From NCBI GenBank assembly GCA_903813345.2, contig CAIIXF020000010.1, forward strand, positions 4,269,169 to 4,333,168: a DNA stretch of 64,000 nucleotides. The letters are read 5' to 3'. The DNA comes from Owenia fusiformis (Eukaryota > Annelida > Polychaeta > Sabellida > Oweniidae). Both the position numbers and the translations under genes were made by a program. Positions 1,038 through 55,344 of this stretch are shown here, one piece after another (position 1 is the stretch's first letter; the number at the start of each line of letters is the position of its first letter). Below the pieces are notes generated by a model, which was given only the letters and a program-made list of their open reading frames with translations, ran no database searches and had not been told where the DNA came from.

Positions 1038-2057
1038 AGGCTTTGGGCCTAAGTAAGATTGTGCCATGATCACAAGGATTGTACCAAATACACACAGCAG
1101 TGGCTGAATGCAAAGGGAGCAAAGGGTACTATGTGAGGGAAAGAAAACTGAAATAAATCAGATTTTTTATCCTTTTACAAAGGATTGGTATCGATATGGC
1201 GAACTGAATTCAAAATTGTTTTTCTCTCAAACCAATTATTGAAAAAGCACTGTCCTTTACATGTATGTAATGGTCACTGGTTGAAAACAATCTGAAGCAG
1301 AATATATTATATTATATATACTAGATAATAGCATATACATTTTTTATAGCATATACATTTTCTTTGACCTCTCAATATTATAGTTGTACAAAGGAAAGTT
1401 TGGTTCATTTAACAAAAAGTATTCAAAAAATTAAAACAAAAACCACCAAAATATATTAAAGTAAACATTTTATTCATTAACAAGATTCTTTTTTTATAAC
1501 CAAACTTTCCCTTATACAGTTACAATATTGTGAGACCTAAACATTTGTACATGTATATGTCATTTTGTACAGATAGATGTTCCATTTCAGACCATCGAGT
1601 GTTAATTTTAGGAAACAACACCCAAAAAGAATGATCATAACGCAATGCATTGAGTCTTTGGCTTCAATTCTTATCACACATTGCAAAATATTTTTCACAA
1701 AATCATTTAAAAGATACAAAATATTATTGTATAACTGTATGCAGTTGCATGAAATAGTGTGGCCTAATTGGCTGGAATTGGACATACCTTGCCTGGCTAG
1801 CTACAGTATTTATGAATCAGATTTGACAATTTGCAATTTGATAGTAGTTGCACTATATCGTTTTATAATCTAATGAAACTAACGATCATATATAATTATT
1901 ACATGTACATACATGTAATGTATTTATTATTTGTAAAATATATCTCTTACAATCATACTATACAATAAACATGCCTAAGTTTCAGGCCTATGATTTAAAA
2001 AGATTTACATAATCATCATTGTATTTCTGCAATACACAGTTCCATTTGAAATGAACT
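1038..2057. repeat. Left copy of a 1,020-bp near-identical duplication (pairs with 7754-8773)
   Basis: This segment matches 7754-8773 at a constant offset of 6,716 bp. I saw only two substitutions (near 1332 and 1625) on reading. It starts exactly at the LINE junction and ends exactly where retroelement sequence begins. The right-hand copy is the 3' flank plus the last 70 coding bases of HYKK exon 6B. The left copy is therefore a severed duplicate of host DNA, not part of the retroelement. Confidence 0.95.
1988..2057 (-). pseudogene. Severed copy of the last 23 codons of HYKK exon 6B
   Basis: Inside the left duplication, 1988-2057 on the minus strand equals 8704-8773, the C-terminal codons and TAG stop of HYKK alternative exon 6B. 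It is cut off upstream at 2057/2058, where gag-like retroelement sequence starts. No acceptor or upstream coding sequence remains, so it cannot encode anything on its own. Confidence 0.85.
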
Positions 2058-3022
2058 GCGCACTACGAGGAATGCAAAGACTTCAAGACGAGGTTAATCA
2101 GAAGTTAGCCCAAATCGCACCCGGATTCCAGAATCGACCAATCACCACAAAAACCAACAAAACCAAACAGAAGAAAGAGAAGAAGATCCCCAAAGACAAA
2201 GACATTAAGCACAAAACCAAAAAAGGTAAAAAAAATTCACATAGGTCTAGTAAGAATTATTTTTCCTCAAGTGAATCCTCAGCATCTTTAAGTTCAACCT
2301 CAGATTCAAGCTCCGAGTCTTTGTCAAGTGAATCAGATTATGATACTGAGTCTGAATCAAATTCCTCTGAATCAAAATATTCAAAAAAATCAAGAAAGAC
2401 CAAACATAGATCAAGCAAAAAAAAATCAGGAATAAATCAAACCCATTCAAAGTCTTGTAAAAATCCTCAAAAATATCCTCATATAGGCCTCAAATATGAA
2501 TTTGCAAGAATGAATGTCAAATACAAAGACCTAGACATAAATCTGTTCGTGGCAGGAGTTTTGAATTTGGTGGTCAATGAGATAGAATATCATAAAATCT
2601 CAAGGTCAGGTGTTGTCATCAAATTAAAGCATTTAATGGAGTTGATGTATTTGAACAAAAGAGGTTTTTCATGGGTCCAAGTTAGAAATTTCCATGCTAA
2701 CATTCTAAGTGAGATTGAGTCAGGGGAATTTTCTTGGGGTGACGATACGACTCACATTTTGAACCACCTCTCTGTACAGAACCAAGTTAATAAAAAGCCT
2801 CAAAACATCCAAGTTCATACAGGTCAAAACATTAGCTGGTACTGCATAGATTTCAACAAAGACAACTGCGCAGAAAATTCTGCGCATATGTCAAAACAGC
2901 AGATCAAAGGACAAGTTAGATTGTTAGAACACATTTGTTCGGTTTGTTATAACAAAGACAGGTCCAAGTCAAATCATTCAAAAACTAAATGCCTGCAAGG
3001 CATTTCTCATCCGAGTAAGTAA
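2051..3022 (+). CDS. Gag-like protein of the DIRS/Ngaro element (N-terminally truncated)
   Basis: This 323-codon frame has a lysine-rich start, a long serine/acidic tract (roughly residues 70-115) and a second basic stretch. A globular part follows (about 140-265), and then a Cys/His-containing tail. No named domain is recognised; ORF1 of such elements is thought to encode a nucleic-acid-binding gag-like protein. The first ATG and the next codon lie in host-derived sequence, so this start is an accident of the junction and the real N-terminus is lost. The stop overlaps a good splice-donor match (GTAAGT, 3015-3020). Confidence 0.75.
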   Translation: MNCALRGMQRLQDEVNQKLAQIAPGFQNRPITTKTNKTKQKKEKKIPKDKDIKHKTKKGKKNSHRSSKNYFSSSESSASLSSTSDSSSESLSSESDYDTESESNSSESKYSKKSRKTKHRSSKKKSGINQTHSKSCKNPQKYPHIGLKYEFARMNVKYKDLDINLFVAGVLNLVVNEIEYHKISRSGVVIKLKHLMELMYLNKRGFSWVQVRNFHANILSEIESGEFSWGDDTTHILNHLSVQNQVNKKPQNIQVHTGQNISWYCIDFNKDNCAENSAHMSKQQIKGQVRLLEHICSVCYNKDRSKSNHSKTKCLQGISHPSK

Positions 3023-3047
3023 TTTAGAAAAAGAACTTACTTCAACT

Positions 3048-4982
3048 TTGGACTTATCTCTGTTAGATCAAACAGAAACTTATGTTGTAGATAAGGATAA
3101 GAATTACAATTTTGACACAACACAACACTTAGGGTACACAAACCCAACAAACACAATTTTAGCATGCACACAAACAGAAAGTACATGCAACAACCACATA
3201 CACAACAACACACAGAGTCTACAAACAATTTTGACAGTTCAAGACGAACTTATATTACCGGACTCACCAACACTTTTACAATCACCACATGAACAATGGC
3301 CACCTACGTTAGTTCAAAATCATGGCCTATACATTGAATTACACAACAACATCACACAAACAGGGGCTTACAATTTTGAAAAGGCACGTATACCTCTACC
3401 AACACCTCTGATAATAGAAAATTGGAAAAAACTCTTGTCAGACTATTCAGATAAAGAAATAGTCAAATTTTTGGAATTTGGTTGGCCCATAGGTTTCGAG
3501 GGAATTATAACACCCAATAACAAACCTACTAACCACGGCAATGCTCACAATTTTCCTAAACACATTGACCAGTTCATTATTAAGGAGGTGCAAAAGAGAG
3601 GTACTATAGGCCCTTTCAACAATAACCCTTTTTCACACAACATACTTTTATCCCCACTCAATACAGCGGATAAAAAGAATTCAGAATTACGACGCACTAT
3701 TGTAGATCTCAGTTTCCCACCAGGAAACGGCATAAACGATGGTATTCCTGAAGGTCAATTTCTTGGAGAAGAAATCAATCTTACTTACCCTTCAATTGAT
3801 GATTATTCACAAATCATAATCAAATTAGGTAAAGGTTGCGCTTTATTCAAGGTCGACCTGTCTAGAGCATATAGACAATTGCATCTAGATCCTTTTGATT
3901 ACGACAAGATCACCTTTTGTTGGAGACAAAAAATCTTTTTTGACGTAGTTCTGCCTTTCGGTCTCAGGACTGCGGCATACATTTGCCAAAGAGTTACTAA
4001 TGCTATCACATACATTCACCAACAACAAGGTTACCATGTAATCAATTACTTGGATGACTTCGGAGGTTGCGAACCTTTTGATAACGTGAATTCAGCAGTC
4101 AGTCACTTAAAACAAACACTCACTTCACTTGGCTTATCAGAATCCTCAGAGAAATATCTTGCTCCAAGTAACAAAATGGAGTTCCTGGGCATTCTGGTAA
4201 ACACCAACAATATGACACTCTCAGTCACACAAGACAGACTATTAGAAATTACACAACTAATAGAACATTGGTTAACTTTAAACAGTGCGACCAAAAAACA
4301 ATTAGAAAGTCTTTTAGGTAAACTCCTCTTTGTCTCAAAATGCGTTAGAGGGAGCAGGGTGTTCATTAATAGACTCCTGGTTAAGTTCAGAAGCTTGAAA
4401 AAACAACATCATAAGTTCAAAATCTGTTCACAATTCAAGAAAGACTTAGTGTGGTGGAAACATTTCATGGGCACCTACAATGGAGTCACAGTCATCCCTG
4501 ATAGTGAATGGACACCTTTAGATTCCATTGTGGCCACTGATGCATGTAACACAGGTTTAGGTGGATATTCACATAACAAATTTTATCACACTACCATCCC
4601 ACTTTCCTTACAATCTCACAGCATTAACGCTTTGGAATTACTAGCTATTTTATTAGCATTAAAACTCTGGGGTCACCACTTTCAAAAGAAACGCGTTTTG
4701 GTCAATTGCGACAACCAAACTTCGGTATTGGTGATCAACACCGGTAAATCCAGAGATAAGTTTTTACTGTTGCTCTTAAGAGAAATTTCTTTCGTAGCAG
4801 CTACGCACAACTTTCAAATCAAAGCAACACACATACCCGGTCATACCAATGTGTTAGCAGATAGTCTCAGCAGGTGGCATACAGGCTTAGAATTCCAAAA
4901 CAAAGCTAAACAATTGCTCCCAGAGAATTCAGTCGAGTACAAAATCAAATCCTTTCATTTCAATTTTAATGAATGTTGGTAA
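3048..4982 (+). CDS. Reverse transcriptase / RNase H of the DIRS/Ngaro element
   Basis: The 644-codon frame carries a reverse transcriptase with the motif VDLSRAYRQL (about residue 270) and the polymerase box YLDD (about 339). The RNase H domain starts at ATDACNTGLGGY (about 496), continues with LELLA and CDNQTS, and ends near HIPGHTNVLADSLSR. The catalytic aspartates are present and there are no internal stops. No ATG lies upstream of the polymerase core. The first codon here is TTG and the frame stays open backward into the gag frame, so expression probably needs frameshifting or splicing from ORF1. It overlaps the recombinase frame by 10 bases. Confidence 0.9.
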   Translation: MDLSLLDQTETYVVDKDKNYNFDTTQHLGYTNPTNTILACTQTESTCNNHIHNNTQSLQTILTVQDELILPDSPTLLQSPHEQWPPTLVQNHGLYIELHNNITQTGAYNFEKARIPLPTPLIIENWKKLLSDYSDKEIVKFLEFGWPIGFEGIITPNNKPTNHGNAHNFPKHIDQFIIKEVQKRGTIGPFNNNPFSHNILLSPLNTADKKNSELRRTIVDLSFPPGNGINDGIPEGQFLGEEINLTYPSIDDYSQIIIKLGKGCALFKVDLSRAYRQLHLDPFDYDKITFCWRQKIFFDVVLPFGLRTAAYICQRVTNAITYIHQQQGYHVINYLDDFGGCEPFDNVNSAVSHLKQTLTSLGLSESSEKYLAPSNKMEFLGILVNTNNMTLSVTQDRLLEITQLIEHWLTLNSATKKQLESLLGKLLFVSKCVRGSRVFINRLLVKFRSLKKQHHKFKICSQFKKDLVWWKHFMGTYNGVTVIPDSEWTPLDSIVATDACNTGLGGYSHNKFYHTTIPLSLQSHSINALELLAILLALKLWGHHFQKKRVLVNCDNQTSVLVINTGKSRDKFLLLLLREISFVAATHNFQIKATHIPGHTNVLADSLSRWHTGLEFQNKAKQLLPENSVEYKIKSFHFNFNECW

Positions 4983-5965
4983 TTTTTCCAGATCAAATCA
5001 AGGAGCTCAAAAAGCAAGCTAATCACAACATGATGTCTGCATATAACAGCAAAACCTGGCAGAATTTATACACACAATGGAGGACTTTTCTTTTATTTTG
5101 TGTTTATTACAACATGGCATTTTTACCAGTTCAAACAGACACCATTCTTATTTACATGCAATTCTTGAGTAGGACTTTCAAATCAGTGTCTTCCATTTTA
5201 AATTATGTAAACGGCATAAAAGTTCTACATTTATTACATGAATTGCCCTTTCCTTTACTTCATAGGGAATTCCAATACAAACTCCTTTATAAAGGTTTAC
5301 AAAGAAATAATCTACACACCGTCAAAAGAGCTTTACCTATTACCCCAGAAATTTTAACTCAAATTTTTGGCTCGTTAGATCTAACCTCAGATTTAGAGTC
5401 CACATTTTGGTTTCTAATCCTCACACTTACGTTCTTATTCGCAAGAGCAGGAAACATTATCCCTTATACAACTTCTACTTTTGAGAACAACAAACATCTT
5501 TTACAACAAGATATTTTCAAACAAGACTCAGCTGGTTTGATTTTCCTCATAAAACACTCTAAAACAAACCAAGCAGCACAACGCATTTTAACACTTCCGG
5601 TGTTAGCCAAAGAAAGTTCTCCCTTAAATATTGTGTCCGCATTCAATCATAAAAATTCTTTCCATAAATATAAGAAAACTTTTCCAGCCTTTCTTTACTC
5701 AAAGAATGGTAAATTGATTACATTTACAAGGCAAAAATTCGTTAAAATTTTGAGAAACAAATTACAAAATTTAGGATATAATCCTTCATTTTATAGTGGA
5801 CATAGTTGCAGAAGAGGGGGAGCTTCCTGGGCATTCAACGCTAACGTTACTGGTGAAGCCATTAAGGCACATGGAGATTGGGCTTCGCAGTGTTATCTTA
5901 GATACATAGAATTGAATATCGCTTCCAAACTGGCAGTCAGTCATAGAATGTTAGCACAAATTTAA
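4973..5965 (+). CDS. Tyrosine recombinase of the DIRS/Ngaro element
   Basis: The 330-codon frame has the C-terminal catalytic layout of tyrosine recombinases. The box-I arginine is in FLFARAGNI (about residue 160), the lysine-bearing beta hairpin is near HSKTN, and the box-II pattern HSCRRGG is near 278. An HGDW motif and the nucleophile region CYLRYIE follow near 305. The alpha-helical N-terminal part resembles a core-binding domain. This enzyme replaces the integrase of LTR elements and joins the circular intermediate to the target without a target-site duplication. All key residues are present. It starts at an ATG inside the end of the RT frame. Confidence 0.9.
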   Translation: MLVIFPDQIKELKKQANHNMMSAYNSKTWQNLYTQWRTFLLFCVYYNMAFLPVQTDTILIYMQFLSRTFKSVSSILNYVNGIKVLHLLHELPFPLLHREFQYKLLYKGLQRNNLHTVKRALPITPEILTQIFGSLDLTSDLESTFWFLILTLTFLFARAGNIIPYTTSTFENNKHLLQQDIFKQDSAGLIFLIKHSKTNQAAQRILTLPVLAKESSPLNIVSAFNHKNSFHKYKKTFPAFLYSKNGKLITFTRQKFVKILRNKLQNLGYNPSFYSGHSCRRGGASWAFNANVTGEAIKAHGDWASQCYLRYIELNIASKLAVSHRMLAQI

Positions 5966-6025
5966 TCAAATTCACTACTTTACGCATGGTAAATGTTCAT
6001 AAGTTTATTCTTGGCGCCTCGGCTT

Positions 6026-6415
6026 GGTGGGCGCGACCAGTTTGATTACTTTAAATTATCATGAAAACATAATAAATATGTTTTCTTGCAAACTAGTCGC
6101 CCTTGCGCCAAATAAATGTGTTATAAGTTTCATTTTACTTTATGTTTTTATGTTTTTGTTTTATTTTACGTTGTCTTGTTTTGAGTCTTATTTAATTTAT
6201 GTATGTTTTGTCAATAAACTGTAATATTTTAAGTGTCATAATATGTCACTTTATTGTTTGTATTTAACTAACAAACTAAGTGTTTGTAATGTATTGTATT
6301 CTTGTGTTGTAACAGTTTCCATACAAAGAAACACAAATCTTATTTGAATGAATCATCAATAAACTATAAATTATTATTTTAACCAATTTTCAGTTACTTG
6401 GATCAATTTAATTTG
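6026..6415 (+). repeat. Split direct repeat B1 of the DIRS/Ngaro element
   Basis: The 390-bp repeat begins GGTGGGCGCGACCAG and recurs at 6803-7192 with no difference that I could see. It contains AATAAA signals (for example near 6211), so it may also supply the 3' end of the element's RNA. Confidence 0.93.
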
Positions 6416-6802
6416 TCGTATTTTTGAGACCAATTGTTGGTACCTAAAATGCCGTAATTTAATTGGTCAACATAAATTAACTTCAACCAATAGAAACCTT
6501 ACCTGTTGTCACATGACCCAATATTATAATTATTACCCGCCAATTTTACTTACCTTCACTTACACAAAGAACTTCCTTATATCAACACCTTCTTTTTAAA
6601 ATTCCAGGTAAGGTTTTTATACTTTCATTATTTCAAATCAAGTTATTTTCAATATTGTAATTAATTAAAGTAATTTCAATCTTTTATTTACAACAAAGAA
6701 CTTCTTATATCAACAGCTTCTTTTTAAAATTCCAGTCCACATTAAATTTCATTTCCCCACCCTAAACCCACCCTCTACATTTTATCAAGATTTCACAATT
6801 AG
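6416..6802 (+). repeat. Internal A2 segment between the split repeats
   Basis: This 387-bp spacer lies between B1 and B2, the place of A2 in Ngaro/PAT-type elements. It holds an internal duplication of about 40 bp (near 6565-6606 and 6696-6735) sharing AAAGAACTT and TTCTTTTTAAAATTCCAG. The matching A1 at the left end is absent because the element is truncated there. Confidence 0.7.
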
Positions 6803-7192
6803 GGTGGGCGCGACCAGTTTGATTACTTTAAATTATCATGAAAACATAATAAATATGTTTTCTTGCAAACTAGTCGCCCTTGCGCCAAATAAATGTGTTA
6901 TAAGTTTCATTTTACTTTATGTTTTTATGTTTTTGTTTTATTTTACGTTGTCTTGTTTTGAGTCTTATTTAATTTATGTATGTTTTGTCAATAAACTGTA
7001 ATATTTTAAGTGTCATAATATGTCACTTTATTGTTTGTATTTAACTAACAAACTAAGTGTTTGTAATGTATTGTATTCTTGTGTTGTAACAGTTTCCATA
7101 CAAAGAAACACAAATCTTATTTGAATGAATCATCAATAAACTATAAATTATTATTTTAACCAATTTTCAGTTACTTGGATCAATTTAATTTG
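6803..7192 (+). repeat. Split direct repeat B2, right end of the DIRS/Ngaro element
   Basis: This is the second copy of the 390-bp repeat. The match to B1 ends at TCAATTTAATTTG (7192), after which the sequence is unrelated, so 7192 marks the right terminus. The element joins unduplicated DNA (7193-7753). Confidence 0.93.
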
Positions 7193-7753
7193 AGTTCATG
7201 GGAGGCCCGGATAGAGGTACCCTACCTAGGCCTAAGTAACCTCAGAAATGGAGGGAAAATTGAAAAAATTAAAAATTGTTTTTTTTTCATTTTCCATGAA
7301 ATAGCCTGCTTAGTTTACTCATATTTACCGGTATTAACCTACATAACATAAGCAATAATGTTTGCGTCGCCATTAGATGTTACACTACATACCTCCAAGG
7401 AGCTACAACTGTCGTATTTTACACCTTTTACTGGTAATTGTGAAATAAAAGTAGATTTGTTTTTGATATTTCAAACCGGAAGTATGTGCTATTTATACGA
7501 ACGGACAGAACATTGTGACGAAATACAGTTCTTACTTTACCCATATAACTTTGTCTTAATTTGGACCTACATGTAGGTCCTACAGTATATCTAAATGTAT
7601 TTTCATACAATACTGATATTTATCATTCCAAAATCAGTAATGGCTCTGAATTATTAAAATGTGACAACAGATTTCAATTATGCAGGATGTATTTATTTAT
7701 TTAACATCTGCCATGATTTATGATTGTGCTTACTCGAGTCTTTAGCTATGAGA
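7193..7753. other. Unduplicated spacer between the retroelement and the right 1-kb copy
   Basis: These 561 bp lie between the retroelement's right end and the right duplicate. Apart from short open frames without support I see no gene. The stretch is absent before the left copy within this window, where LINE sequence occupies that place instead. Confidence 0.6.
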
Positions 7754-8773
7754 AGGCTTTGGGCCTAAGTAAGATTGTGCCATGATCACAAGGATTGTAC
7801 CAAATACACACAGCAGTGGCTGAATGCAAAGGGAGCAAAGGGTACTATGTGAGGGAAAGAAAACTGAAATAAATCAGATTTTTTATCCTTTTACAAAGGA
7901 TTGGTATCGATATGGCGAACTGAATTCAAAATTGTTTTTCTCTCAAACCAATTATTGAAAAAGCACTGTCCTTTACATGTATGTAATGGTCACTGGTTGA
8001 AAACAATCTGAAGCAGAATATATTATATTATATATACTAGATAATAGAATATACATTTTTTATAGCATATACATTTTCTTTGACCTCTCAATATTATAGT
8101 TGTACAAAGGAAAGTTTGGTTCATTTAACAAAAAGTATTCAAAAAATTAAAACAAAAACCACCAAAATATATTAAAGTAAACATTTTATTCATTAACAAG
8201 ATTCTTTTTTTATAACCAAACTTTCCCTTATACAGTTACAATATTGTGAGACCTAAACATTTGTACATGTATATGTCATTTTGTACAGATAGATGTTCCA
8301 TTTCAGACCATCGAGTGTTAATTTTAGGAAACAACACCCAAAATGAATGATCATAACGCAATGCATTGAGTCTTTGGCTTCAATTCTTATCACACATTGC
8401 AAAATATTTTTCACAAAATCATTTAAAAGATACAAAATATTATTGTATAACTGTATGCAGTTGCATGAAATAGTGTGGCCTAATTGGCTGGAATTGGACA
8501 TACCTTGCCTGGCTAGCTACAGTATTTATGAATCAGATTTGACAATTTGCAATTTGATAGTAGTTGCACTATATCGTTTTATAATCTAATGAAACTAACG
8601 ATCATATATAATTATTACATGTACATACATGTAATGTATTTATTATTTGTAAAATATATCTCTTACAATCATACTATACAATAAACATGCCTAAGTTTCA
8701 GGCCTATGATTTAAAAAGATTTACATAATCATCATTGTATTTCTGCAATACACAGTTCCATTTGAAATGAACT
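7754..8773. repeat. Right copy of the 1,020-bp duplication (HYKK 3' flank and exon 6B end)
   Basis: This copy is continuous with the rest of HYKK exon 6B and so is the ancestral location. It contains the 3' UTR region of that exon on the minus strand, including an AATAAA signal (TTTATT on the plus strand, near 8637). A stretch near 8300-8415 also resembles 31875-31990, so part of it is itself a dispersed repeat. Confidence 0.9.
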
Positions 8774-9287
8774 TCAGATTTGGATATATTCCAAAAGTTT
8801 CTCATTATTTTCCAGCCATTCCTTTGGGAAGTTACTAGATAATGATTTGTGGGATCATCTATATATTTTAGAGACCCCAATACAAATTCTTGTGCGAATG
8901 CTCTGTGAATGCAAATATACAGCAAATCAAGTTCTCTTGCACTAAGATCCATATGAGTAAAATAACCAGCTAGAAAGTGACCTGCGACATCAACAGGGTC
9001 AATTAAAGTGACCTCTATCATTAAGTAACAGATTGCTATCGCAACCTCAAAAATAAAATAGCTTCTGAAACTATCTCCAAAGTCAATTACACCAGTGGCA
9101 ACATATTGTTCATCATTTGTGTTAGTATTGTCATTGGCACTTTCACTGACATCAAATTGTGCGTGTTTAATCACTTGGCCATCATTTGGCACTTTGGAAT
9201 GACTACCAGCTTTTACTTGGTTTGATTTATCAATTGTTTGTATTTGCACTATGATATTTTCATCATGAAAATCTCCATGTATTATAC
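8704..9287 (-). CDS. HYKK: Alternative terminal exon 6B of HYKK (second catalytic C-lobe)
   Basis: The exon opens at a good acceptor (ATTCCAG at 9294-9288) in the same phase as exon 6A and ends at TAG. Joined to exon 5 it would give a 439-aa protein. It repeats the whole exon 6A module: HGDFHDEN (H249, D251, N256 in that isoform), then a loop 34 residues longer rich in Asn, Asp and Ser, then DFGD. Shared C-lobe segments include ICYLMIE and HFLAGY. DFGD is closer to the usual DFG form than the DFQD of 6A. No upstream exons specific to 6B lie between 9288 and 11390. It is therefore either a mutually exclusive last exon or the remnant of a tandem gene copy; intact catalytic residues favour use. 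Confidence 0.8.
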
Positions 9288-9303
9288 CTGGAATAGAAAA
9301 CAT

Positions 9304-11390
9304 TACATTCTATGAAAAATGTCATTAAGTCTCATTTCAAGTTTCCCTTATTACATATTAAATATTAGATCCAACTTCATACCAAAACACAAGAATGAAA
9401 AGTACATGGGAATAAGCCAGTAAACCATCATGTGTAAATATTTCCTCTTAATATACCCTTTGCATCATCTAAGTCTATATGATGTATTTAATGTTGTGTA
9501 TTGTATAGATTGTTTATTGTTTATGTATATATTTTTTATGTTAATATATTGTTTATCTTTATGTCATATATAGCTATATATGTATTGCACTAATCTTCTT
9601 AAATTATAAAATCAGAGACACATTCTACTCTAAATATTTATATCTACATAATTATACAGTAAATGCTGTGTGAGGGAACACATTAACTTCAAAATAGTGT
9701 TCCACTTAGGAGGTGTTCTACTAACAGTAAATATTTCATTTTACATTAAGTTAATAGATAATTGGACTTTGAAGTGTTCCATTTATGGAGGTGTTCCACT
9801 TACAGGTGTTCTACTTTACAAGTTTCACTGTATATTCATAGTAAGTACGATTGTACAGTCTGAATACAGATGTAACATAAAATATATCATAACAAAATAT
9901 ATCATAACAAGCTTATACCATGGTCAAGAGCAATATCTACTTAAAATTCTCTGTTGAATGAGAGAACATTTTTGAAAAATTTTAATTTTTGAAAAAATGA
10001 AAAATTTTGAAAAAATTTTTTTTTTAATATATACCCAGATTGATATCCATATCAACCCTGATATCATCCCTCAAATCCCAATATCATCCCTATCCTAAAT
10101 ATGTGTTTTATCACTTGCTTATATTGCTCTGACTATGGTATAATATAACATACATGTATCATATAATTAAAAAACCTTTTCTACATATCTATTTGTATGC
10201 TGTCTCTAACAGTACCATATGGTACCATTTTGGCTTTGGTACTGTATGGTACTGTAAAAAATGTTATCAAACAGGACTGTAGACTAAAACAGTGTTCTGT
10301 AATGTACCATTTGGTACCATGATTCTGAATGCAGATTGGGGCTATACATAGGCTCTATATATAGAGAGCCTAAACAAAATATGTATTATATAATTTGATT
10401 GTTTCCATGTTATCAATTATGTTTTACAATGGAGAGTAAGTCTAAAATCATTGCATTACAAGATCAAACATTTTACAATCATTATAGCATTTCATTGTCA
10501 ATATCTGTAGAAAAATACTTCTCAATATTATCTTATATACATGTAGTATGTCATAGATATTAGTTAGTTCACATCACTTTCTGATACCATTCTCTAATAT
10601 CGTTCTAAACTCAATACAATAGCAATTACATCTGTCACTTTCATAATAACATTGTATTTTCGATAAAATGATATCAATGAAGTCATTATGGTACATAATT
10701 GTTCCGTAAAATTTAAATAGTCACTTCATTCACATGTATGTGATATGACTATATCGCAATATCATATTATCAATATCATTTTCATTAATTTGTTGATATC
10801 AATATCAGTCCTTATCCACTTTGCTCACTCACAATGACACTTCACTTCCATCGATCTGATTGGCCCGTGATATTGATATCAACTCAGTGATATAAAAGAA
10901 ATCCCTCAAACCAAAGGCCAATTAGATCACTAGAAATATCAATTTAACATGAACTAACTAAGATCTTAAGAAATGTCATCATCACTGAATATAGCAATAT
11001 TTTCTCATCTAATTTGAAACCCTGTATTATAAATGTACAAACATGTACAATTTGGAAGACATTTTAACATTCCATAATGTTGAAATGTATTTTATCAGCA
11101 ATATATTTTTGTGCATTTCCAATCTTAATCACAAATTATTTTATATTAAATTGTAATTTAATGAGCTTAAACTAAAAATAATACAAACTTTCATTTCCAT
11201 GAATCAATAAACTAATTGCATTTGCTTCCTTATAATCACCCTGAGTACATTGTAGACATGCTTTTCCCCATAATAAATTAATGGTAAGAATTCCTTTGCG
11301 TCGCTATGTATTGATCATTATATTCTGGGATCATAATAAAAAAAAAGATACGTAAATTTTAGAGGAAAATCACGTCAGTCATTCAGTGAA
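9304..11390. other. Spacer between HYKK terminal exons 6A and 6B
   Basis: This 2.1-kb AT-rich stretch has no coding signal. It holds low-complexity A/T runs (9960-10030), a GGTACC-rich imperfect palindrome near 10210-10325, and ATATC/GATAT-rich sequence at 10660-10900. It would be intron for a 6B transcript and 3' flank for a 6A transcript. Confidence 0.5.
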
Positions 11391-14300
11391 TTACTTTTTG
11401 TAAGAATCAATGATATTTTTCCATCGCGTGTACAAAGCATCTTGAGAAACAGGCCATAGAATTTTCAATTTTTTCCATCCATTTTCCTGTGTGACTAAAA
11501 GGTACTCATTACCAGGGTCAAGGGAATACGAGTAAGCCCCCATTACAAGCGACTGAGCAAATCTAGATGCGACACATATTTTCAGTACTTCAAACTCTGA
11601 TTCATTGAGTGACATTTCTGACAAATACCCTGCGAGGAAGTGTCCACCAACATCGAGGGGATCCACATTTTGACATTCAATCATGAGATAACAAATCCCG
11701 ATAGCTACATCAAAGACAAAATAAGAAAATGCAGCATCTTGGAAATCTAGTACGCCACAGACATCGTATTCTTTCACAGGGGTGTCTGGTTTTAGAGAGC
11801 TTGGTGTCACCAAGAGGTTCTGCTCATTGTAATCCCCATGAATGGTACCTACAAACAACAGTGGCACCATTAACAATCTGAGGGCCCATATCAAATATTG
11901 ATAAATTATTTTTTTGTGAAGATGTAATTTCATAAGGGAAAAGAGGTGATACCCCACAATTATTCAGATAAGAATTGTTGAAATTGGAGACAATGCCATT
12001 CCAGAGACATGTAAATATGCTTTAAAAACATTAATTTCAATGTTCAAAAGATTTTATGAATATCGAAGGACAATCATTTTTACATAGCCTCTAATGGACC
12101 CATTAGAAAATCCACTTCGGCCCTCATATGTTGTTAATGAAGCCTCTGAGATGTTTGCTAAAGAATGTGATCTATAAGATAAGAGCTGTTTAGAAAAGAA
12201 GAAAGACCCTCTCATCTCACTCCGATTCAAACACTTATGAAAAAAAGGTAAGAAAACACCAACAGCCCAGACCCTATAAACAAAACTGATTTGACTCTAA
12301 GGTTAAGGTTATAATTCATTTGTTTATCATTAGAGAGGGTAAGCTACATGTGTTTAAGATAACTTGCACATGAATGTGAAGAACTATTATATGGTTCTCT
12401 AGAGATACATGTCAGTTGATATATTAAAGTTGATAAGTATCATAAGGAACATTGTTGTAGTTAGGTTACTGGAAAACCAATTGAGATCCCTGAGGTCACA
12501 TTCAGGAATAAAGTTATTGAAAAACATGTAGCTCACCAGTAACACAACATAATTTGATAACAGCAACAGTGTCCTCACCTTTAGTAAGTTTATCATAGTG
12601 AGGTGGTACTTGAGCTTCAAATGCAGTTAGAACCTCCTCTATGAGAGCATGATTGTCTGGATCTGTGACTGCATACACAAACTTGCTGAGCTGAGGGGTA
12701 CTGGCGAGGTTCCACAAGGAAGTGTAGTCATCAAAGGCAGCATGGTTGAAATTGGTGTCCTGGAATATCAAAATAATGTAATTGTAGCAAATCAGGGTAC
12801 CAAGTCACTACAAGAGCAAAGCTAACCTACATGTATTAGGTAACTCATTTTGTAGTGTTACATGAGATATTGAGGGCTCCCGAGTTCTAATTCCACATAC
12901 CAGTGCTCAATGTACAAGGCACAGACAGGACCCTACAAATCATATACACACCACAATCTAAAGAGGAAGGATGGATGAAAACATGGTCATCAAGTAAATG
13001 ACACATTTTAATATCTCAATGAACAAAGCAAACATATACACAACACATTTACATATGCTTTCTTTACATTTTAAACAAATTAGGATGAATTAAGCTAAGT
13101 GAGATAAAAACTATTGTAGTATTGTATTGTATTTATTGTTTCCATTCAACATTTGATTTGTTAATAGTTTAACCATAAGTTTAAAATTCATGCATTTTTC
13201 AGGATATCTGTTGCACAGTTCCTACCAGATTAGTGGTTTAAAAGAACATCTTATTCGAACATACAAATGTGTAAAATATTTCAAAGTACAGTTAATCATT
13301 AAATTAAGTTTCAGATTCATTCTATGTATCTTATATGAGACTTTCATATTGCCAAAAATTCAAAAGATTTGCACAAACATTTCTAAACTTGATGTGAATT
13401 TTTAAAATAAATCCAAAATGTGTCTAAACTAATAAAGAAAATCATCTGCCATGCAATGTCATCTCCAAAAAGAATAATGTTCTATACCTTGAAAAGTTTG
13501 TTTATTCTGCCAAGCATGACTCCAGCACTATGGAACAGATGAGGTGTGTATGGCACATTGAACAATGTTTCACCTGGGATAAATGTGAGGAGACGTACAG
13601 TATGACGGTTGAATGGTCTGTCTCCACCTTCACCTGGAATGCAATCAACATACAGAACATCTTAGAATTTTTGTTTTTTCCTAAAAAATGACAAACTACC
13701 GCACCATTTGTTCCATGTAAAAACAATATACTACGTATATTTAAATAAAATTTTTCAATAATAACTAATAAAAAATGCAGTTTATTTATAAAAAAGAAAT
13801 CTACCACAAAAAACTACCGTTTTTCAAAACATTTCAAAATCTACTGCATTTTTGACTAACTACCACAAAGACTACCAGATTTTAAGATGACCTAAAAATT
13901 ATTCCACAAAAATAAAGTAATTTTAATAAATATACCACAATTTTTTATTCAAGGTTGGCAGGTCTGGATCAATAAGCATTCAGAAGCAGGGTTTCACATT
14001 GTTTAATACAGACCAATACCCACTTTACTGAATGTTGTGTTGAATTGACATATTTTTGAATATATGGATAATCAGCCTTTAACTAGTAATTTTATACTTT
14101 CTGCAGCCAAATTCCTGGTAGAAATCACAAAAATCGAAAAATGAAAATTAAAGTAAATTTTTCTCTACTGTATATATATGGCAGCATGCATCAATGAATG
14201 TATGACCATGTCACAATACTTTACCTTCAATTCAGCTTGCTCAAAATCATGTTTTTTTACTTTAAAATTTACTTAAAAAAAACATTGAGAAATCCTGCAG

Positions 14301-17300
14301 AATTTTTCCTGAAGTATTCATAATTTCATTTACCATCAAATACTCCTCTCTTATTTGATACAAAGTGTACACATACCTGCCAACCTTAGACCAAAACTTT
14401 GCGGTAGATTTTTTTAAAATTGCTGTATTTTTGCGGTAGATTTTTTCAAAATACGGTAGTTTTTGCGGTATTTTTCAACAAAATTGCGGTAGTTTTTGCG
14501 GTAGATTTTAGAAAAAACGGTAGTTTTTGCGGTAGATTTTTTAAAAAAATGGTAGTTTTTTGCGGTAGATTTAAAAAATACGGTAGTTTTTGCGGTAGAT
14601 TTTAAAAAAATACTGTAGTTTCAAAGGTTTGGGGTAGATTTTTGAAAAAAGTGTAATTTTGCGGTAGAAATTTGAAAAAAGCGGTAGTTTTGCGGAAGAT
14701 TTAGAAAAAATGCGGTAGTTTTACGGTAGATTTTTAAAAATGCGGTAGTTTTTTGAAAAACCGGTAGTTTTGCGAAAGATTCTGAAAAAATGCGGTAGTT
14801 TTACGGTAGATTTTGAAAAAATGCGGTAGTTTTTACGGAAGTTTTTTGAAAAACCGGTAGTTTTGCTGAAAATTTTGAAAAAATGCGGTAGTTTTACGGT
14901 AGATTTTGAAAATTGCGGTAGTTTTTACGGTAATTTTTTGAAATACCGGTACTTTTGCGGAAGATTTTGAAAAAATGCGGTAGTTTTATGGTAGATTTTG
15001 AAAATTGCAGTAGTTTTTACGGTAATTTTTTGAAAAACTGGTACTTTTGTGGAAGATTTGCCAAAATGCGGTATTTTTCGGTAGATTTTGCAAAGTGCGG
15101 TAGTTAAACCTTTATACAATGCGGTTTTCTATATTAATACAATGTTTACGTGGTCATATTGTTGTTGTTATTGTGAATACATATTTTACTGCAAGAGTGA
15201 TTTTGATAATTACAGTTTGTAAAGCAGAACTACCACCTGAGAATTTTACGAAACTATTATTTTCAAGAAAAAATAGATATACTATTTTCAAGAATAAATA
15301 GAGACTAAACACTTTTTATTCTTCATTTACCATGCCTACAATGGACTGACAGAAACTTTGGATTTTAATGTTTCAGCAAAATGTACATATACAACTTTTT
15401 TACAATAAATCTAGATTGATTCAAAATACGAACACAATATTCATATCTCCACTTTTATTCACCTTCTAATCAGTTTTTTTAGATATCAGGATGTTTGGAA
15501 ATACCATGAATGAAACATTTACTGAAATACAAAATATGGTTTTTACTCACCATCTTAGATGATCTATCATTTTAACGAATTGAAATGACAGACATAATGT
15601 TCATATCATGTCATATAACATTGGAATCATATGGTATTAAATATTGATTTGTTCACTCGCAAGTCTCTAATGACTGAATGATATCAATGTATTTGTCTGG
15701 CACAAATAGAAAATAAGTACAGATCAATTGTCTTTCAAAAATAATTTGTTATGAGCATTTGCCGAAACCTTTCCCCTGAGACATCGTTCAGATTCGGATA
15801 TCACAATACTTTTATAATAAACCAGAACTCAATGCTTTATTTTTTAATTAAGTATTTGTTACTGATAATGTGTTCTGATGAAAAATTCAACATTTTATCG
15901 TTCTGTTAACAAATTGATTAAACTATGTATAATGTATATGTGTCGTTCATTACTGATCATAACAAATCAAACTACGCATATTTCATACGCTAAATATGCA
16001 TACGCATTTCCACTCATTTATTTAGATGAAGCGCAACTAAAATCATCTTTTTGTTGCATTCGGAATAAAGATCCGTGTACAAAAGGGTTTGGTTAACTAC
16101 AAAAATAGGACCCACGGTCCTGTGCTCACACAGTTTGGAACCTTCAGAGGAATGTATATCCTGACTTTAAAACAAAAATATTGATTTGGATTTGTTGTCT
16201 CGAACTTTGAGAAATAAACTTTGATAGCACAGTTGTGTGACCTAGTTTGATGACCTTTGACCTTGAAAATTTTACTTATTCAGAGCTCAGTAAGGTCTTT
16301 TGTGATTAAGCTGACCAAAATTTGAAACCAAAAATCAATTTTAAAAATCAACTTTTTTGTAGATGATTTTCAAAAAAAAATTGGTCAAATTGAAGCAAGT
16401 TGAAAAATAATTTATTTTTACTGTTTTTTGACGTCAAATATCTCAAAAACTGTAAAAATTTGATGCTGACATATATTGAGCAATATGTAGGGAATGCTTA
16501 AATCTAGTAATGATGTAATTCATTGCAAGAAATGATCAAGTATAAGGCAAACTTTGAGAATCTTGTCAATCACAAAACCTGCCATTGACTTTATACATGA
16601 GAAAGTTTCCTGAAAATGACCAAGTCCTACTTTTTGTCAAATTTTATAGAGTAAACACCAAAAACAGTAATTCCAAGAGCTTTGAAATCTTCAGAGGACA
16701 TAAGTTGCATATACAGCAAATACTAAAAGTTATTTGAAAGTTCTACTTCAACAAAGTGTCTAGTATATACAGAAAATTTGACTTTTTGACGTCAAAATCG
16801 GCAATTTCTCGGAAACCGGGTGAACTTGGGAAATGGCGATGATAGGTCAAATAGGCATTATGGATATGCATAAAATGAATGTGGATATGACTCAATCCGA
16901 ATAGCAGTTTTAATTTGTGCGGCCAATGTTGACAGACGGACGGACGGACCAACGGACGGACGGACCAACGGACGGACGGACAGACGGACGGACGGACGCC
17001 TGGTCGATCCCATAGGCTCACTGTGTGAGCCAAAAATCATGGCAGAAAGAATTCTTTCTAGCTAGTGGTAGTTGGTGTTTGGACTGATTACACGCAAGCT
17101 TACTTAGATAAATGCGCAATAACCTGATAACCACAGACCTGCCGATACCGGGTTGGTGAAGGAATATTACAGGGACAGTACAGGAAGACTTCAATTTTTC
17201 AGCATTTCCCAATAACAATAACGGGAAATTTTACGGTAGTTTGAACAAAAATACTGTTGATTTTAGCAGAAATACGGTAGATTTTCGAAAATTTACGGTA

Positions 17301-19391
17301 GATTTTCAAAAAGTTACGGTAGATTTTACGGCCGTTCTCATGGAATAAACGAGTTTTTTACAAAGAAAATTTACGGTAGATTACGCAAAAAATACGGTAG
17401 ATTTTTCTACGGGCGTTTTTACGGGAAAAAATGATATTTTTTTTACGGTAGTTTGTCATTTTTTACGGAAAAACGAAAAATTTACACGGTAGGTTGGCAG
17501 GTATGGTACATACTGCTGTTCCCCCTTTTGCAATCATTGTGCTGTGTGTATGTGTACTTGTAAAAAGACTCACTGCAAGATTAAATGAAAACCAGTACTG
17601 AAACAGAGCAACATACTTGGTGTTTTCATCCATCCTTCCTCTTTTGATTGTGGTGTGTATATGACTTGTAAGGTCCTGTCTGTACCCTGTACATTGAGTA
17701 CTGGTAGTGGGCATGGTATATCATTGCTGTGTAGCAGTCTCTGCATCCCATGTTCTGCATCTGTAACATACATGTACCATGACACCTGTTAACGATCAAT
17801 GCCCTAATATGGCATTGACTGATCTCAAGGACTAATAATATGTCAAATATTTCATGGTGGTAAAATATATATATATAGAGGATATCCTATGATTTATGAG
17901 TGATATAATTTTTATACACGAATGGATATGATATCTGCACGAGCGAGCGTAACGAGAGAGTGCAGATATCAATATCCATGAGTGGATTAAAATCATATCA
18001 CGAGTAAATCATAGGATGTTCTTTTTATTCCATAGTTAAAATCATCATCAGGATCGTTGGAAATTAAGTGATTTAATTCGAATTTTCCAAACGATCCGGC
18101 AATATTGACACTTAGCCTCGTTTTGAGTCTGAAGTAGCAAAAATCCATAATTCATAGCATACGGCGCCGTATGTCATGGCTTAAACACCGTATGTTGTGG
18201 TTAAGTGAAAATTTGTCAAAAATATATTTTACCACTGATTACAAAAATACCGTTTTTATTTTGACATGTTATCCAGTATGAATATCATGCTAACTATGGA
18301 ATAAAAATATATATTTTAAGTTATATGATATAAGTAACACAAGAATTAATGTATCATGTGTTCCTCTTTATACATTTTCATGCGAGTTCTAATTAAGTCA
18401 TATAAATTACAAAGTATCCAGCTAGACCATTTCAATAAGTACAATCTACTAACTCACCAATATGTGCTTTAACAGACTCCATTGAGTTTGTAACTTTGAG
18501 GGTGTAACCATGGGGCCAGATTTTCTCAATGTTGTTATTGTTGTGGTCTTCCTTTACTTTCACATAATAATTTCTGTCATCATAACTTGCCATCTCTTTA
18601 ATAGATGTCACCTATAGTAAGAAACATCAAAGTGATCTAAACTCCATTTTTAACGCAGATAACATTCTACTGTACATAAAAAACTGAACTTTTCATATGA
18701 TAAAGAGAGTTCATTTTCCAATCAGGAGCTAAACATTCATGAAAATTACTTATTTAGAGCTTTCAGATGACATGCTGATTTTCATCATGATTGATGGCAG
18801 AGCTGAATGAAATTCCAAACATGGGATAATGAAATTCCAAACATTGGTAAAAGCTATTTCTCCAAAACTAATTAAAGTTACCTTGTATTGTCAAACTTTA
18901 AGATAGTTATGATAACTAATTTTTCTGTCAGATGATCAAATTCCAAGAACATTTTTTTCAATAATTCAGAGAGTTATTTCATGTTTGGGTCACCAAACAT
19001 GGAAAAATGGTTGACATATAATACTAAAGCCAGATTTTGTCTAAAACTAAATAAACTTACCTGGTGAAACTTTCAGATGTTACTGATATTATGATTGTCT
19101 GTCAGGTGACCAAATTTCAAGAATATTTCTTCCCAGAGTTATCTCAAGTTTGTCACTGAACTTTTTGGGACACCCATTACTAAAGATATCTCAATACCTA
19201 TTCCTTCCATAACATGACCTTAAACAACTTTATTCATAAATATCTAGGCATACTAAAAGCTTCTTGGATGTTTAACCTACCTCCATTCCAAAGAGAATCC
19301 TGACCATATTCTTGGCAACATTCTCATTCATCTGGGGCTTGATAACCTGGCCAGGTTTCAGTTCAGCTTCTTTCTCATTACTTCCATCCAT
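11391..19391 (-). CDS. HYKK: Hydroxylysine kinase (aminoglycoside phosphotransferase family), isoform ending in exon 6A
   Basis: Coding exons, all minus: 19391-19281, 18611-18458, 17760-17617, 13633-13488, 12759-12579 and 11848-11391. They total 1,194 bases and 397 aa, close to the vertebrate enzyme (373 aa), and every splice phase closes. HYKK phosphorylates 5-hydroxylysine with GTP in the cytosol during lysine/collagen breakdown. Exon 2 carries the family N-lobe motif SYDDRNYYVKV. Exon 6A carries the catalytic loop HGDYNEQN (H249, D251, N256) and the metal-binding DFQD (D280). The start chosen is the first ATG of exon 1, which begins at an acceptor at 19414, so a 5' noncoding exon lies upstream. 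Intron 3 is about 4 kb and mostly repeats. A second terminal exon (6B) lies 2.1 kb downstream. Confidence 0.92.
13655..13970 (-). mobile_element. Solo end of the GGTAG-repeat element, opposite orientation
   Basis: This stretch has many CTACC/CTACCGC words (the reverse complement of GGTAG) and ends with GGTTGGCAGGT at about 13954-13964. That is the inverted form of the terminus at 14375. It looks like one terminal array of the same element family as 14372-17505, inserted in the opposite direction in the same HYKK intron. Confidence 0.6.
14400..15110 (+). repeat. GCGGTAG degenerate minisatellite with higher-order structure
   Basis: Units such as GCGGTAGTTTTACGGTAG followed by ATTTTGAAAAA recur throughout. 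From about 14715 onward they group into a larger unit of roughly 80-95 bp, in which a GCGGTAG pair alternates with ACCGGTAGTTTTGCG and a GAAGATTTTGAAAAAAT spacer. The short frames spanning it on both strands are repeat artefacts. Confidence 0.85.
16105..17040. mobile_element. Interspersed repeat with GGAC microsatellite and inverted ends
   Basis: The segment begins near GTCCTGTGCTCACACAG and ends near CTCACTGTGTGAGCC, which are inverted with respect to each other. Next to the right end lies a GGAC/GGACC tetranucleotide array (16934-16998). GGAC arrays preceded by a GAGTTATC-like phrase recur at 40786-40818 and 57535-57578, so this arrangement is common in this genome. Confidence 0.5.
17222..17490 (+). 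repeat. Second ACGGTAG array (right arm of the 3.1-kb element)
   Basis: About ten ACGGTAG words, mostly followed by ATTTT and A-runs, lie in the same orientation as the left array and run directly into the right terminus. Confidence 0.75.
17878..18305. mobile_element. Hairpin (foldback) element in HYKK intron 2
   Basis: A long imperfect palindrome (17880-18020) centres on TCTGCACGAGCGAGCG opposite GAGAGAGTGCAGATATC, with outer arms TATGATTTATGAGTG and GTAAATCATAGGAT. A second inverted pair, TTCCATAGTTA (18028) and TAACTATGGAA (18292), follows. No coding capacity is seen. Confidence 0.6.
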
Positions 19392-34196: not shown

Positions 34197-37100
34197 ATGA
34201 TGGCCACACAGAGACAACGCCGGTGTCGAGAGTACACTGGTCCAACACCTCATTCAGTGGCAATCGTAAGTATAAATTGATACCATTCTTCATCTGCCAT
34301 TCTTTCTCCATGTTTACAGTAGGCCTAGAGTAAGCTTAGACGAGTAAACAGAAAGATTGCATGGTGTCTGTCAGTGTATTACCAGTGTATTATAGACGAG
34401 ACTATAGGTAATTCTAAATACTGTCTTGATCAAATAGCTGGCATACAGTGCACCTACGTACATGTGTTGAGGACATTGCTTCTCTCACTTTTAGTCATCT
34501 ACATTTTTTGTCATACTGAAATCGGAGCCACAATTCAAAACAATCTAAATAATATGGAACGAGGATGGTGAAGTAATGTTGTCCATGTAATTGTATGTAA
34601 TTGTCCAACAATAACCTACATGGACGATGTTGACTCCCTGTACTCCATTACATCTGCGTATTTGTGAAGCTTGTAGGTACATGTAGGACAACATAATCAT
34701 CAGTAACTTGATGCACATGTACAATATACATCTAATAAAACATGCTGCATTCTTCAGTGCCTTCATTGAAATTTCAAAGTACATACATGTACAGTGTATA
34801 AAACTTGCCTTTAGAATAAACCACACAGTGCAGCTCAAAAACAGTAACACTGAATTGAATTCATATACCACAGATCACACGGATACTTCATAAAAATGCT
34901 GACTGTGAACTATTATTCTGTCATATATAGCCTAAATGTGCATGTATATTTTAGCACGTCGCAATTCTAAATCATGTAAATGCGCGTTATCTATATTAGC
35001 TTAGCTCATAATATTGTGCCATACATGTACTGTATGTGATATTGTATTCTTACAAAGTAAATTACCTGTAGATACTTTAACAATTGAACATGTATATCAT
35101 TCTTTATTATTTTTCATTAATACAGAGAGAAAGACCAACAAACAAAAGACCACCAGAGTACAACATCTTAGAAAGACGCAAGAAAGAACAAGCCATTGAG
35201 GAAGCTGAATCTATGACCAAGTATCAAAATCTATGTGATTTAAAAAATGACTGGGAAAAATGGACAGATAAGAAAATACAATTGAATACTGTTAAACGAA
35301 GGGTTAAAACTCTTATGCAAGCTGAGGAATTTAGCATTGAAGATAGGAGAGAAAGGTAACCACGATTTTATTCTAGATACAGTACTTTTTTTTTTTTTCA
35401 TAGTGTAAACTTTGAGGTAAAGTCAATACATTTACCGCCACCAATCGCCTTATCATACTTATATGACTGTGTATTTCTCAAATTTTGTTATCATATCCAA
35501 AATTATGATTGAAGTATATATCAGATTATATTCAAATAGTGATGTAAAATAATAATCAATATTAAGTCTTTTGAAAATAAAAAATACAGTGTTTTTGTCT
35601 CCCCAGCCAGTATCAAAAGAGCAAGTGGATGCTATACTAATCCTGTTGAAAATTCTCAAAATTTAAAGCACCTTTGTTGGTACACTCTATCAAAAGGATG
35701 AAATATTCACACATTTCAGCCAAAATGCAAATGTATCTATGAAATTAGGATTAAACATCCTTAAGTTTTTAAGTTTAATGAGACACGATGCCTATATGTC
35801 TAAAAGAAAAATGTAGTTACTCCTTTTCAAAACAATTCGTATCTTTGTCAGAATGCCCTTGTTGTTATTGTTATCAAGCCAATGACAAGAGTTAATAGTA
35901 AACTCTATATTCCAGGTTGCGTTCAATGCTGGCTGATGAGGAGCAGAGATACATTGAAGAGATGGATGCCAAAGAGGAGACAACCATAGAGAGACAGGCA
36001 AAGATGAGAGAGAAGGCAAAGTCTCTAAGGGAAAAGAGAGAACTTGAAAGATTGCAATTTGTTGATAAAATGTTGGATAAACAATGGAGGTAAGATTTAA
36101 AAATTGTCAATCACCAAGAAATCTGTTTGTGAGAAAAAAATACACTACTCTTTCTTATCAATTTTGTCGCCACTTTTAACAACATATTTTGACCCATGAT
36201 TGAAAAAGTGTCTCTCTTGCCTGTCATGTAACTAAACCTAATCCTGGCTCTTAGATCATAAATAAAACACCTTTCTCAAAAATACAAAATTTTGAAACAT
36301 AAGTGTGACTTTATCTATCTATTTTTTGGAATCATGATCATCTATTTTGTGATATATAAAGTTCTTGGATCTACACAGTATTTGAAAATTTTAATCTTTT
36401 AGGCATTTTGGGCACAAATGTGACACAAAAATATATCATATCAACTGAAAAAGCTATACTTTCCAAATAAGCCAAACATCTAATTTCTTGCTAATACAAT
36501 TTATAGGGATCAATGTGAAGAATTGCGTTCCACCCTGACTAAGCGTCACCAAGATGAAGTGTGTGCTGAACGTATGGAGCAATTGAGGCTGAAGGCAATC
36601 ATGGATGATGAGGCTCAACAGGAGGAGAAAATGTATGCAGACCTCTGGGAGCAGGACAGACTCAATAAGGCAGCTAGGGAAGAGAAGGAAGCTGTGGAGA
36701 AACATAAGAGAGATATGGAAACGTTGGACACACTGCGTATGCAGATGGCTGCACTTGAGGCACAGAAAGCTGAGGAAAAGAAACTTAAAGAAGAGGAGGC
36801 GCAGTTATTGGTAAGTATACATTTTTTATTTTTTTAAAAAACCATCAAGTATTCATTTGTTGATTGTGACCTAAACCATCAACTATTGCTGAATATTAAT
36901 GTGGCCTAAATAATCAAGTATTCATGTTTCATCTGTGACACCTGTAAACTTCAACGAATTTACTTCATGTTTTCCAGAAAGAGCAAGCTGCCTTGAGGAA
37001 GCTAGAAGAGCAGAAGGCTGCTGAAGAGAAGCGTCGTCGCCAAAAGGAAACGCATGACATGCTTGATCAGTCACTGAGAATGAAGGCCAAGAAACAAGCC

Positions 37101-55317: not shown

Positions 55318-55344
55318 GCTCAAGACGCAGAACGATAAAACAAA

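What the first reader, a model, noticed from the sequence alone, without database searches (positions are those of the whole stretch)
8704..12759. Hydroxylysine kinase with two tandem, phase-matched catalytic terminal exons
Seen: after exon 5 the gene has two complete C-lobe exons (11848-11391 and 9287-8704). Both start in the same phase at good acceptors, keep HGDxxxxN and DFxD, and end in their own stops. 6B carries a 34-residue longer loop before DFGD, while 6A has DFQD. Known: these residues form the catalytic and metal-binding site of the APH-fold kinases. Inference: one shared N-lobe could be joined to two different catalytic lobes by alternative last-exon choice, perhaps giving two substrate ranges.
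Basis: partly seen in the sequence, partly recalled or inferred. Interest (0 to 1): 0.78.

Follow-up and report, generated by a model that had tools for sequence, protein, structure and literature searches.

The report
Kinase gene with two last exons
An animal gene for a small-molecule kinase related to hydroxylysine kinase carries two intact, long-diverged versions of the last exon, which holds the catalytic loop, so one gene could make two different enzymes, although no RNA evidence was available to show that both are used.

Summary
A minus-strand APH-fold kinase gene (exons 1-5, then 6A at 11848-11391) is followed by a second intact terminal exon, 6B (9287-8704). Both start at the same phase-1 site, keep HGDxxxxN and DFxD, and end in their own stops. 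The genome holds three other genes of this kind, each with its own exon 6; no spare upstream exons that could belong to 6B were found. 6A and 6B show saturating synonymous divergence, yet 6B has no stop and keeps 48 of 67 residues invariant in 6A and its two nearest paralogues, so selection acted for most of its history. Best explanation: an alternative last exon. A recently silenced relic cannot be excluded without RNA. Corrections: exon 6 is not the whole C-lobe; DFGD is the common form and DFQD the derived one; 6B alone has lost an arginine present in 8 of 8 other full sequences aligned, four of them bacterial. Homologous alternative last exons are a known kind: 77 of 236 human tandem-exon substitution events are C-terminal (PMC9741552, passages).

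The parts
19281..19391 (-). Exon 1 (from ATG; upstream UTR and start not verified)
   Evidence: donor gtaggt
18458..18611 (-). Exon 2
17617..17760 (-). Exon 3
13488..13633 (-). Exon 4 (lies before the catalytic loop)
12579..12759 (-). Exon 5, ends in phase 1 at donor gtgagg
11391..11848 (-). Terminal exon 6A: catalytic loop HGDYNEQN, DFQD, stop TAA
   Evidence: acceptor ranks 1st of 186 AGs
11157..11162 (-). ATTAAA, possible poly(A) signal of 6A
8704..9287 (-). Terminal exon 6B: HGDFHDEN, long loop, DFGD, stop TAG
   Evidence: acceptor ranks 3rd of 186 AGs
8639..8644 (-). AATAAA, possible poly(A) signal of 6B

Best explanation
The gene encodes an APH-fold kinase of the hydroxylysine-kinase type with two homologous alternative last exons. 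Splicing of the exon 5 donor to 6A with polyadenylation behind 6A gives a 397-aa enzyme. Skipping 6A and splicing to 6B, about 2.6 kb farther on, gives a 439-aa enzyme with the same first 245 residues but another catalytic loop, metal-binding motif and C-terminal part. Shown: both exons, the shared phase and acceptor position, intact motifs, long-term constraint on 6B, and no other partner found for it. Inferred: that both splices happen, that 6A and 6B exclude each other because each carries a stop and a poly(A) site, and that the 6B product has changed or reduced activity.
For: Phase and acceptor position identical in 5 of 5 exon-6 copies; 6B's acceptor is the 3rd best of 186 AGs between the exon 5 donor and the end of 6B (small training set of 18 acceptors of the same genes). 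Synonymous differences 6A-6B saturated (pS 0.78) with dN 0.53 and codon-position differences 0.45/0.32/0.62 over 152 codons. 6B has no stop; simulated neutral drift leaves 194 codons stop-free in 22.8% of runs at 0.05 substitutions per site, 6.7% at 0.1, 0.6% at 0.2, 0.1% at 0.3, 0 of 4000 at 0.5. 6B keeps 48 of 67 residues invariant in 6A, C8 and 27.1 Mb (C5 keeps 30 of 67). All 17 matches to exons 1-5 in the genome are assigned by position: 5 to this gene, 5 to C8 (one weak, E 8.7e-4), 4 to C10:27.1 Mb, 2 to C5, 1 inverted fragment. An unfiltered profile scan of the whole window with exons 2-6 adds none (exon 1 is not in that profile).
Against: No transcript data. 6B has a long terminal branch (1.20 against 0.20-0.56 for 6A, C8 and 27.1 Mb), low GC3 (0.25 against 0.38-0.45; local GC 0.32), and Ala at an Arg kept in 8 of 8 other full sequences. 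It keeps only 21 of 30 residues invariant in the other four copies, while in the same leave-one-out count 6A keeps 21 of 22, C8 21 of 24 and 27.1 Mb 21 of 23. Weak constraint or recent loss of function is possible. No 6B was found beside the three paralogues. The region is unstable: a recent retroelement with a 1,020-bp flanking duplication lies next to 6B and duplicates its end.
Confidence: 0.55

Rival explanations
1. 6B is the last surviving exon of an old tandem gene copy. Its own exons 1-5 were deleted rather recently, and 6B is now an unused relic not yet broken by stops.
For: Long branch, loss of the conserved Arg, low GC3; local rearrangements (inverted exon 3 fragment, retroelement with 1,020-bp duplication). 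An ORF of this length survives 0.1 neutral substitutions per site in 6.7% of runs and 0.05 in 22.8%. DFGD suggests that 6B split off before the 6A-C8 pair.
Against: No remnant of exons 1-5 was found in the 2.1 kb before 6B. Acceptor, ORF, stop and AATAAA are all intact, so silencing would have to be recent.
Confidence: 0.25
2. 6B is the end of a separate gene with its own upstream exons, which were missed because they are strongly diverged, lie in a gap or withheld stretch, or are unrelated in sequence.
For: The genome search can miss weak candidates: the Pfam search did not list this gene's own exons, and one search did not list exons 3 and 4 of the C5 gene, which a local search then found. 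Gaps and withheld stretches exist.
Against: Exons 2 and 5 of the C5 paralogue, 49% and 39% identical, were found in the same search, so a partner about as diverged as 6B should show at least one exon. The unfiltered profile scan of the 64-kb window found none of exons 2-5 beyond the known ones and the inverted fragment.
Confidence: 0.13
3. Assembly artefact: a collapsed or misjoined second gene copy makes 6B look like an orphan.
For: A 1,020-bp segment with the last 22 codons of 6B occurs twice with 2 differences, which could come from a haplotype join.
Against: 6B differs from 6A far beyond allelic variation. There is no N gap between exon 1 and 6B (the only gap in the window is 52001-52500), and only one complete 6B was found in the genome.
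Confidence: 0.05

Closest known systems
Tandem duplicated exon substitution events (human set, PMC9741552)
   Same: Two homologous neighbouring exons that can replace each other; C-terminal swaps are common (77 of 236 events; passages read).
   Different: Expression of both is not shown here. The swapped part holds the catalytic loop and metal motif of an enzyme, whereas a passage of that paper says the exchanged regions overlap just 10.7% of predicted functional residues.
Homologous 3'-terminal exons with separate poly(A) sites, e.g. human capping protein beta (PMC3228551)
   Same: Same arrangement: homologous last exons with multiple poly(A) sites (passages read).
   Different: Other protein family. 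[quoted passage not shown]
Hydroxylysine kinase (HYKK/AGPHD1) type of APH-fold kinases
   Same: APH family by Pfam, HxDxxxxN and DFxD. Nearest NCBIfam models are PRK06148 (named hypothetical protein) and PRK06149 (aminotransferase); that these are kinase-aminotransferase fusions is recalled. Of five plasmid relatives opened, the two annotated ones (Rahnella, Arthrobacter) have a class III aminotransferase or phospho-lyase gene downstream, and the Arthrobacter kinase is annotated hydroxylysine kinase.
   Different: No vertebrate HYKK was compared and no substrate is shown. 6B lacks the conserved Arg and has a longer loop.
Paralogues at C8:10.39 Mb, C10:27.1 Mb and C5:4.87 Mb of the same genome
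   Same: Same exon-6 acceptor site and phase, same motifs.
   Different: Only one terminal exon found for each.

Membership tests
APH phosphotransferase family (PF01636) | Profile match above the curated cut-off | tested here: met
   57.8 and 57.4 bits for the two full readings; 25.0 (6A) and 23.6 (6B) bits for the exons alone; cut-off 23.2
APH phosphotransferase family (PF01636) | HxDxxxxN catalytic loop and DxD metal motif | tested here: met
   Both exons; the catalytic role of the motifs is recalled
Hydroxylysine kinase | Orthology to vertebrate HYKK | not tested
Hydroxylysine kinase | Phosphorylates 5-hydroxylysine with GTP (recalled) | not testable with these tools
   No assay data
Hydroxylysine kinase | Arg of the CxAxR(F/L) helix, kept in 8 of 8 other full sequences | tested here: not met
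   Met by 6A, not by 6B (Ala); the feature was derived here, not taken from a published definition, so it does not by itself exclude 6B
Homologous alternative last exons | Adjacent homologous exons, same acceptor phase, own stop | tested here: met
Homologous alternative last exons | Separate poly(A) signals | tested here: inconclusive
   Hexamers present after both; such hexamers are common in AT-rich DNA, and others lie between 6A and 6B
Homologous alternative last exons | Both exons found in transcripts joined to the same upstream exon | not testable with these tools
   No RNA data
Internal mutually exclusive exons | Cluster followed by a common downstream exon | tested here: not met
   Each exon ends in a stop codon
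Separate complete tandem gene | Own set of upstream exons | tested here: not met
   None found in the genome search or the window scan, within their limits

The most novel reading that the evidence does not exclude
One gene makes two kinases by swapping the catalytic part through last-exon choice. The 6B form, with a 34-residue longer loop and without the otherwise conserved Arg, either phosphorylates another substrate or acts as a weakly active regulatory partner. The pair is older than the duplication that gave the C8 paralogue.
Probability: 0.2. Interest if true: 0.6.

Novelty: new member of a known kind. Interest (0 to 1): 0.38.

Why it matters
If both exons are used, this is a natural experiment in which one half of an enzyme is held constant while the catalytic half is exchanged. 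It would allow a direct test of how catalytic loop, metal motif and C-terminal helices set substrate choice in APH-fold kinases. If 6B is a relic, it shows that an orphan exon can stay intact after tandem duplication. Either way the arrangement itself is of a known kind.

Tried and rejected
A hidden short intron inside the long 6B loop: within the limits searched (45-200 nt, frame kept) only four GT-AG pairs exist (66-132 nt), all ending at the same AG inside the DFGD motif without a pyrimidine tract, so rejected. Processed retrocopy: rejected, because 6B keeps the intron acceptor and no exon 1-5 sequence was found in front of it. Tree to date 6B: unresolved (supports 54-73; a 6A+6B clade is not rejected, AU p 0.459; nor is 6A+C8+27.1 Mb, p 0.391; nor 6A+6B+C8, p 0.256). 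Membership in the group 6A/6B/C8/27.1 Mb against C5 and bacteria had 95/93 in the 10-row tree; without L015 (22% filled, dropped) it fell to 73/86. One fetched bacterial locus, L011, never entered the tree because the motif pattern found no frame in it. Structure: both exons were folded alone, mean pLDDT 45.4 and 46.9, uninformative and not searched further. Solved structures: phmmer with the 6A form found none at E up to 1. Second-best acceptor at 10504: read by eye, the frame joined from exon 5 ends after seven codons, so taken as chance. Papers: 'hydroxylysine kinase' with 'alternative splicing' gave 3 papers, 2 listed, neither about splicing of this gene judging by titles and abstract starts. 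(72 papers hold either name, 20 listed) was read as a listing only; some searches were general and read as listings. An attempt to name the species from its chromosome number gave nothing; that about 12 large contigs (inferred from match coordinates) and 498 Mb would suit the annelid Owenia fusiformis is recalled and untested. The Pfam search of the genome did not list the window gene, so it was not used for counts.

Full report
WHAT IS THERE. The minus strand of the window (C10:4269169-4333168 of an unnamed 498-Mb genome, taken to be an animal's) carries a kinase gene with exons 19391-19281, 18611-18458, 17760-17617, 13633-13488, 12759-12579 and terminal exon 6A 11848-11391. A second terminal exon, 6B, lies at 9287-8704. 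Both complete readings are open, 397 and 439 aa. Pfam gives one family for each, APH phosphotransferase PF01636, above its cut-off. The nearest NCBIfam models, PRK06148 (hypothetical protein) and PRK06149 (aminotransferase), are matched far below their own cut-offs (124 against 1128 bits and 77 against 973); that both are kinase-aminotransferase fusions is recalled. Of five plasmid relatives opened, the Rahnella kinase lies beside a class III aminotransferase gene, and the Arthrobacter one, annotated hydroxylysine kinase, lies before an ethanolamine-phosphate phospho-lyase with one small gene between; the three rhizobial records had no annotation there. 'Hydroxylysine kinase type' is therefore a fair name, but neither orthology to the vertebrate enzyme nor the substrate was tested.

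THE TWO LAST EXONS. 6A and 6B are homologous (43% identity in the alignment) and begin at the same phase-1 site just before [TIV]IHGD, a site shared by exon 6 of all three paralogues (5 of 5 copies). With a small acceptor matrix from these genes (18 acceptors, the scored site left out of its own training), 6A ranks first, a site at 10504 second and 6B third among 186 AG dinucleotides between the exon 5 donor and the end of 6B. Two C5 exon starts (2 and 5) showed no AG at the assumed boundary and were left out of the matrix; C5 exon 4 was not given. ATTAAA lies at 11162 behind 6A and AATAAA at 8644 behind 6B; other such hexamers lie between the two exons. Exon 6 covers the catalytic loop onward, not the whole C-lobe.

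HOW THEY DIFFER. The stretch between HxDxxxxN and DFxD is 57 residues in 6B, 23 in 6A and 13-27 in the eight other sequences measured. DFGD is found in 6B, the C10:27.1 Mb and C5 paralogues and the five bacterial sequences in which the motif was located (of six distinct bacterial relatives fetched; L011 gave no frame); DFQD only in 6A and the C8 paralogue. DFQD is therefore most simply the derived state. At the arginine of the helix after the metal motif (CVASRF in 6A), 8 of 8 other full sequences have Arg and 6B has Ala, with an Arg one place earlier (the short bacterial row L015 dropped). The role of this Arg is not known to me.

IS 6B CONSTRAINED? 6A-6B synonymous differences are saturated (pS 0.78) while dN is 0.53, with codon-position differences 0.45, 0.32, 0.62 over 152 codons. 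6B retains 48 of 67 residues invariant in 6A, C8 and 27.1 Mb, and 21 of the 30 that C5 shares too; in the leave-one-out control 6A keeps 21 of 22, C8 21 of 24 and 27.1 Mb 21 of 23. 6B is thus clearly less conserved than its relatives. Neutral simulation keeps 194 codons free of stops in 22.8%, 6.7%, 0.6%, 0.1% and 0 of 4000 runs at 0.05, 0.1, 0.2, 0.3 and 0.5 substitutions per site (substitutions only, started from 6B itself). Selection acted through most of the branch; a recent silencing is not excluded. Low GC3 (0.25) and a long branch (1.20) fit weaker constraint.

IS THERE ANOTHER PARTNER FOR 6B? A genome search with exons 1-5 gave 17 matches: 5 this gene, 5 the C8 gene (one weak, E 8.7e-4), 4 the C10:27.1 Mb gene, 2 the C5 gene and 1 an inverted exon 3 fragment in intron 4 (assignment by position). 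Searches with the last exons gave only the exon 6 of each gene, 6B, and a copy of 6B's last codons at 1991-2071. An unfiltered profile scan of the window (exons 2-6) found the known exons, 6B and the inverted fragment, and nothing else better than E 5. The spacer between 6A and 6B holds one dispersed repeat at about 9904-10143; no other repeated part showed among the 40 candidates scored. Limits: weak matches can be missed (C5 exons 3 and 4 were), and gaps and withheld stretches exist.

ORIGIN. The tree puts 6B with 6A, C8 and 27.1 Mb against C5 and bacteria (95/93; 73/86 without L015) but cannot place it inside that group; a 6A+6B clade is not rejected (AU p 0.459). DFQD shared by 6A and C8 suggests that 6B left the 6A line before C8 arose. 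If so, either the C8 copy lost or never received a 6B, or 6B is the rest of an older tandem gene. This is inference.

HOW IT MOST LIKELY WORKS. Choice between two last exons: splicing to 6A and cleavage behind it, or skipping 6A and splicing to 6B. Each exon ends translation, so the products exclude each other. Shown are the anatomy, past constraint and that no other partner was found; splicing, regulation and enzyme function are inferred.

KNOWN OR NEW. Homologous alternative last exons are known: 77 of 236 human tandem-exon substitution events are C-terminal (PMC9741552, passages), and capping protein beta is an example with multiple poly(A) sites (PMC3228551, passages). For this kinase type my searches (listings only, capped lists) showed no report. 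The finding is a new, unproven member of a known kind.

Noticed in passing
window 1038-8773: A 5.7-kb insert (2058-7753, + strand; reverse transcriptase and RNase H-like matches by Pfam, then an ORF that looks like a tyrosine recombinase by eye, no Pfam match) sits between two direct copies of 1,020 bp of host DNA (1038-2057 and 7754-8773, 2 differences). The duplicated host DNA reaches into exon 6B and holds its last 22 codons. How a 1-kb flanking duplication arose is unexplained.
   Followed up: partly
window 6026-6415 and 6803-7192: Identical 390-bp direct repeats within the insert, perhaps its own repeats.
   Followed up: no
window 12893-12983 (+): Inverted 91-bp copy (92%) of part of exon 3 within intron 4, the only other match in the genome search. 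In the pre-mRNA it could pair with exon 3 (computed duplex -173 kcal/mol; 50 random stretches mean -40, lowest -158, which probably overlapped the copy). Exon 3 has 144 nt and equal phases, so skipping it would keep the frame.
   Followed up: partly
window 10504 (-): Second-best acceptor-like site between exon 5 and the end of 6B, without a homologous exon behind it.
   Followed up: partly
window 7894-8284: Dispersed repeat just behind 6B: 38 other places among the 40 candidates scored of 4117 in the genome, mostly 72-85% identical.
   Followed up: no
window 14372-15105: Array of imperfect repeats rich in CTACCG with an inverted match at 13794-13966, in intron 3.
   Followed up: no
window 36484-38752 (+): Two exons like the trichohyalin-plectin-homology domain (first above, second below the cut-off); also a PAN domain exon at 55339-55791 and an AbfB-like one, just at its cut-off, at 60953-61414.
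   Followed up: no
G000 C8:10394418, C10:27104310, C5:4868727: With the window gene these make four hydroxylysine-kinase-type genes in one genome; exon 5 of the C8 gene has six more residues in the alignment.
   Followed up: partly
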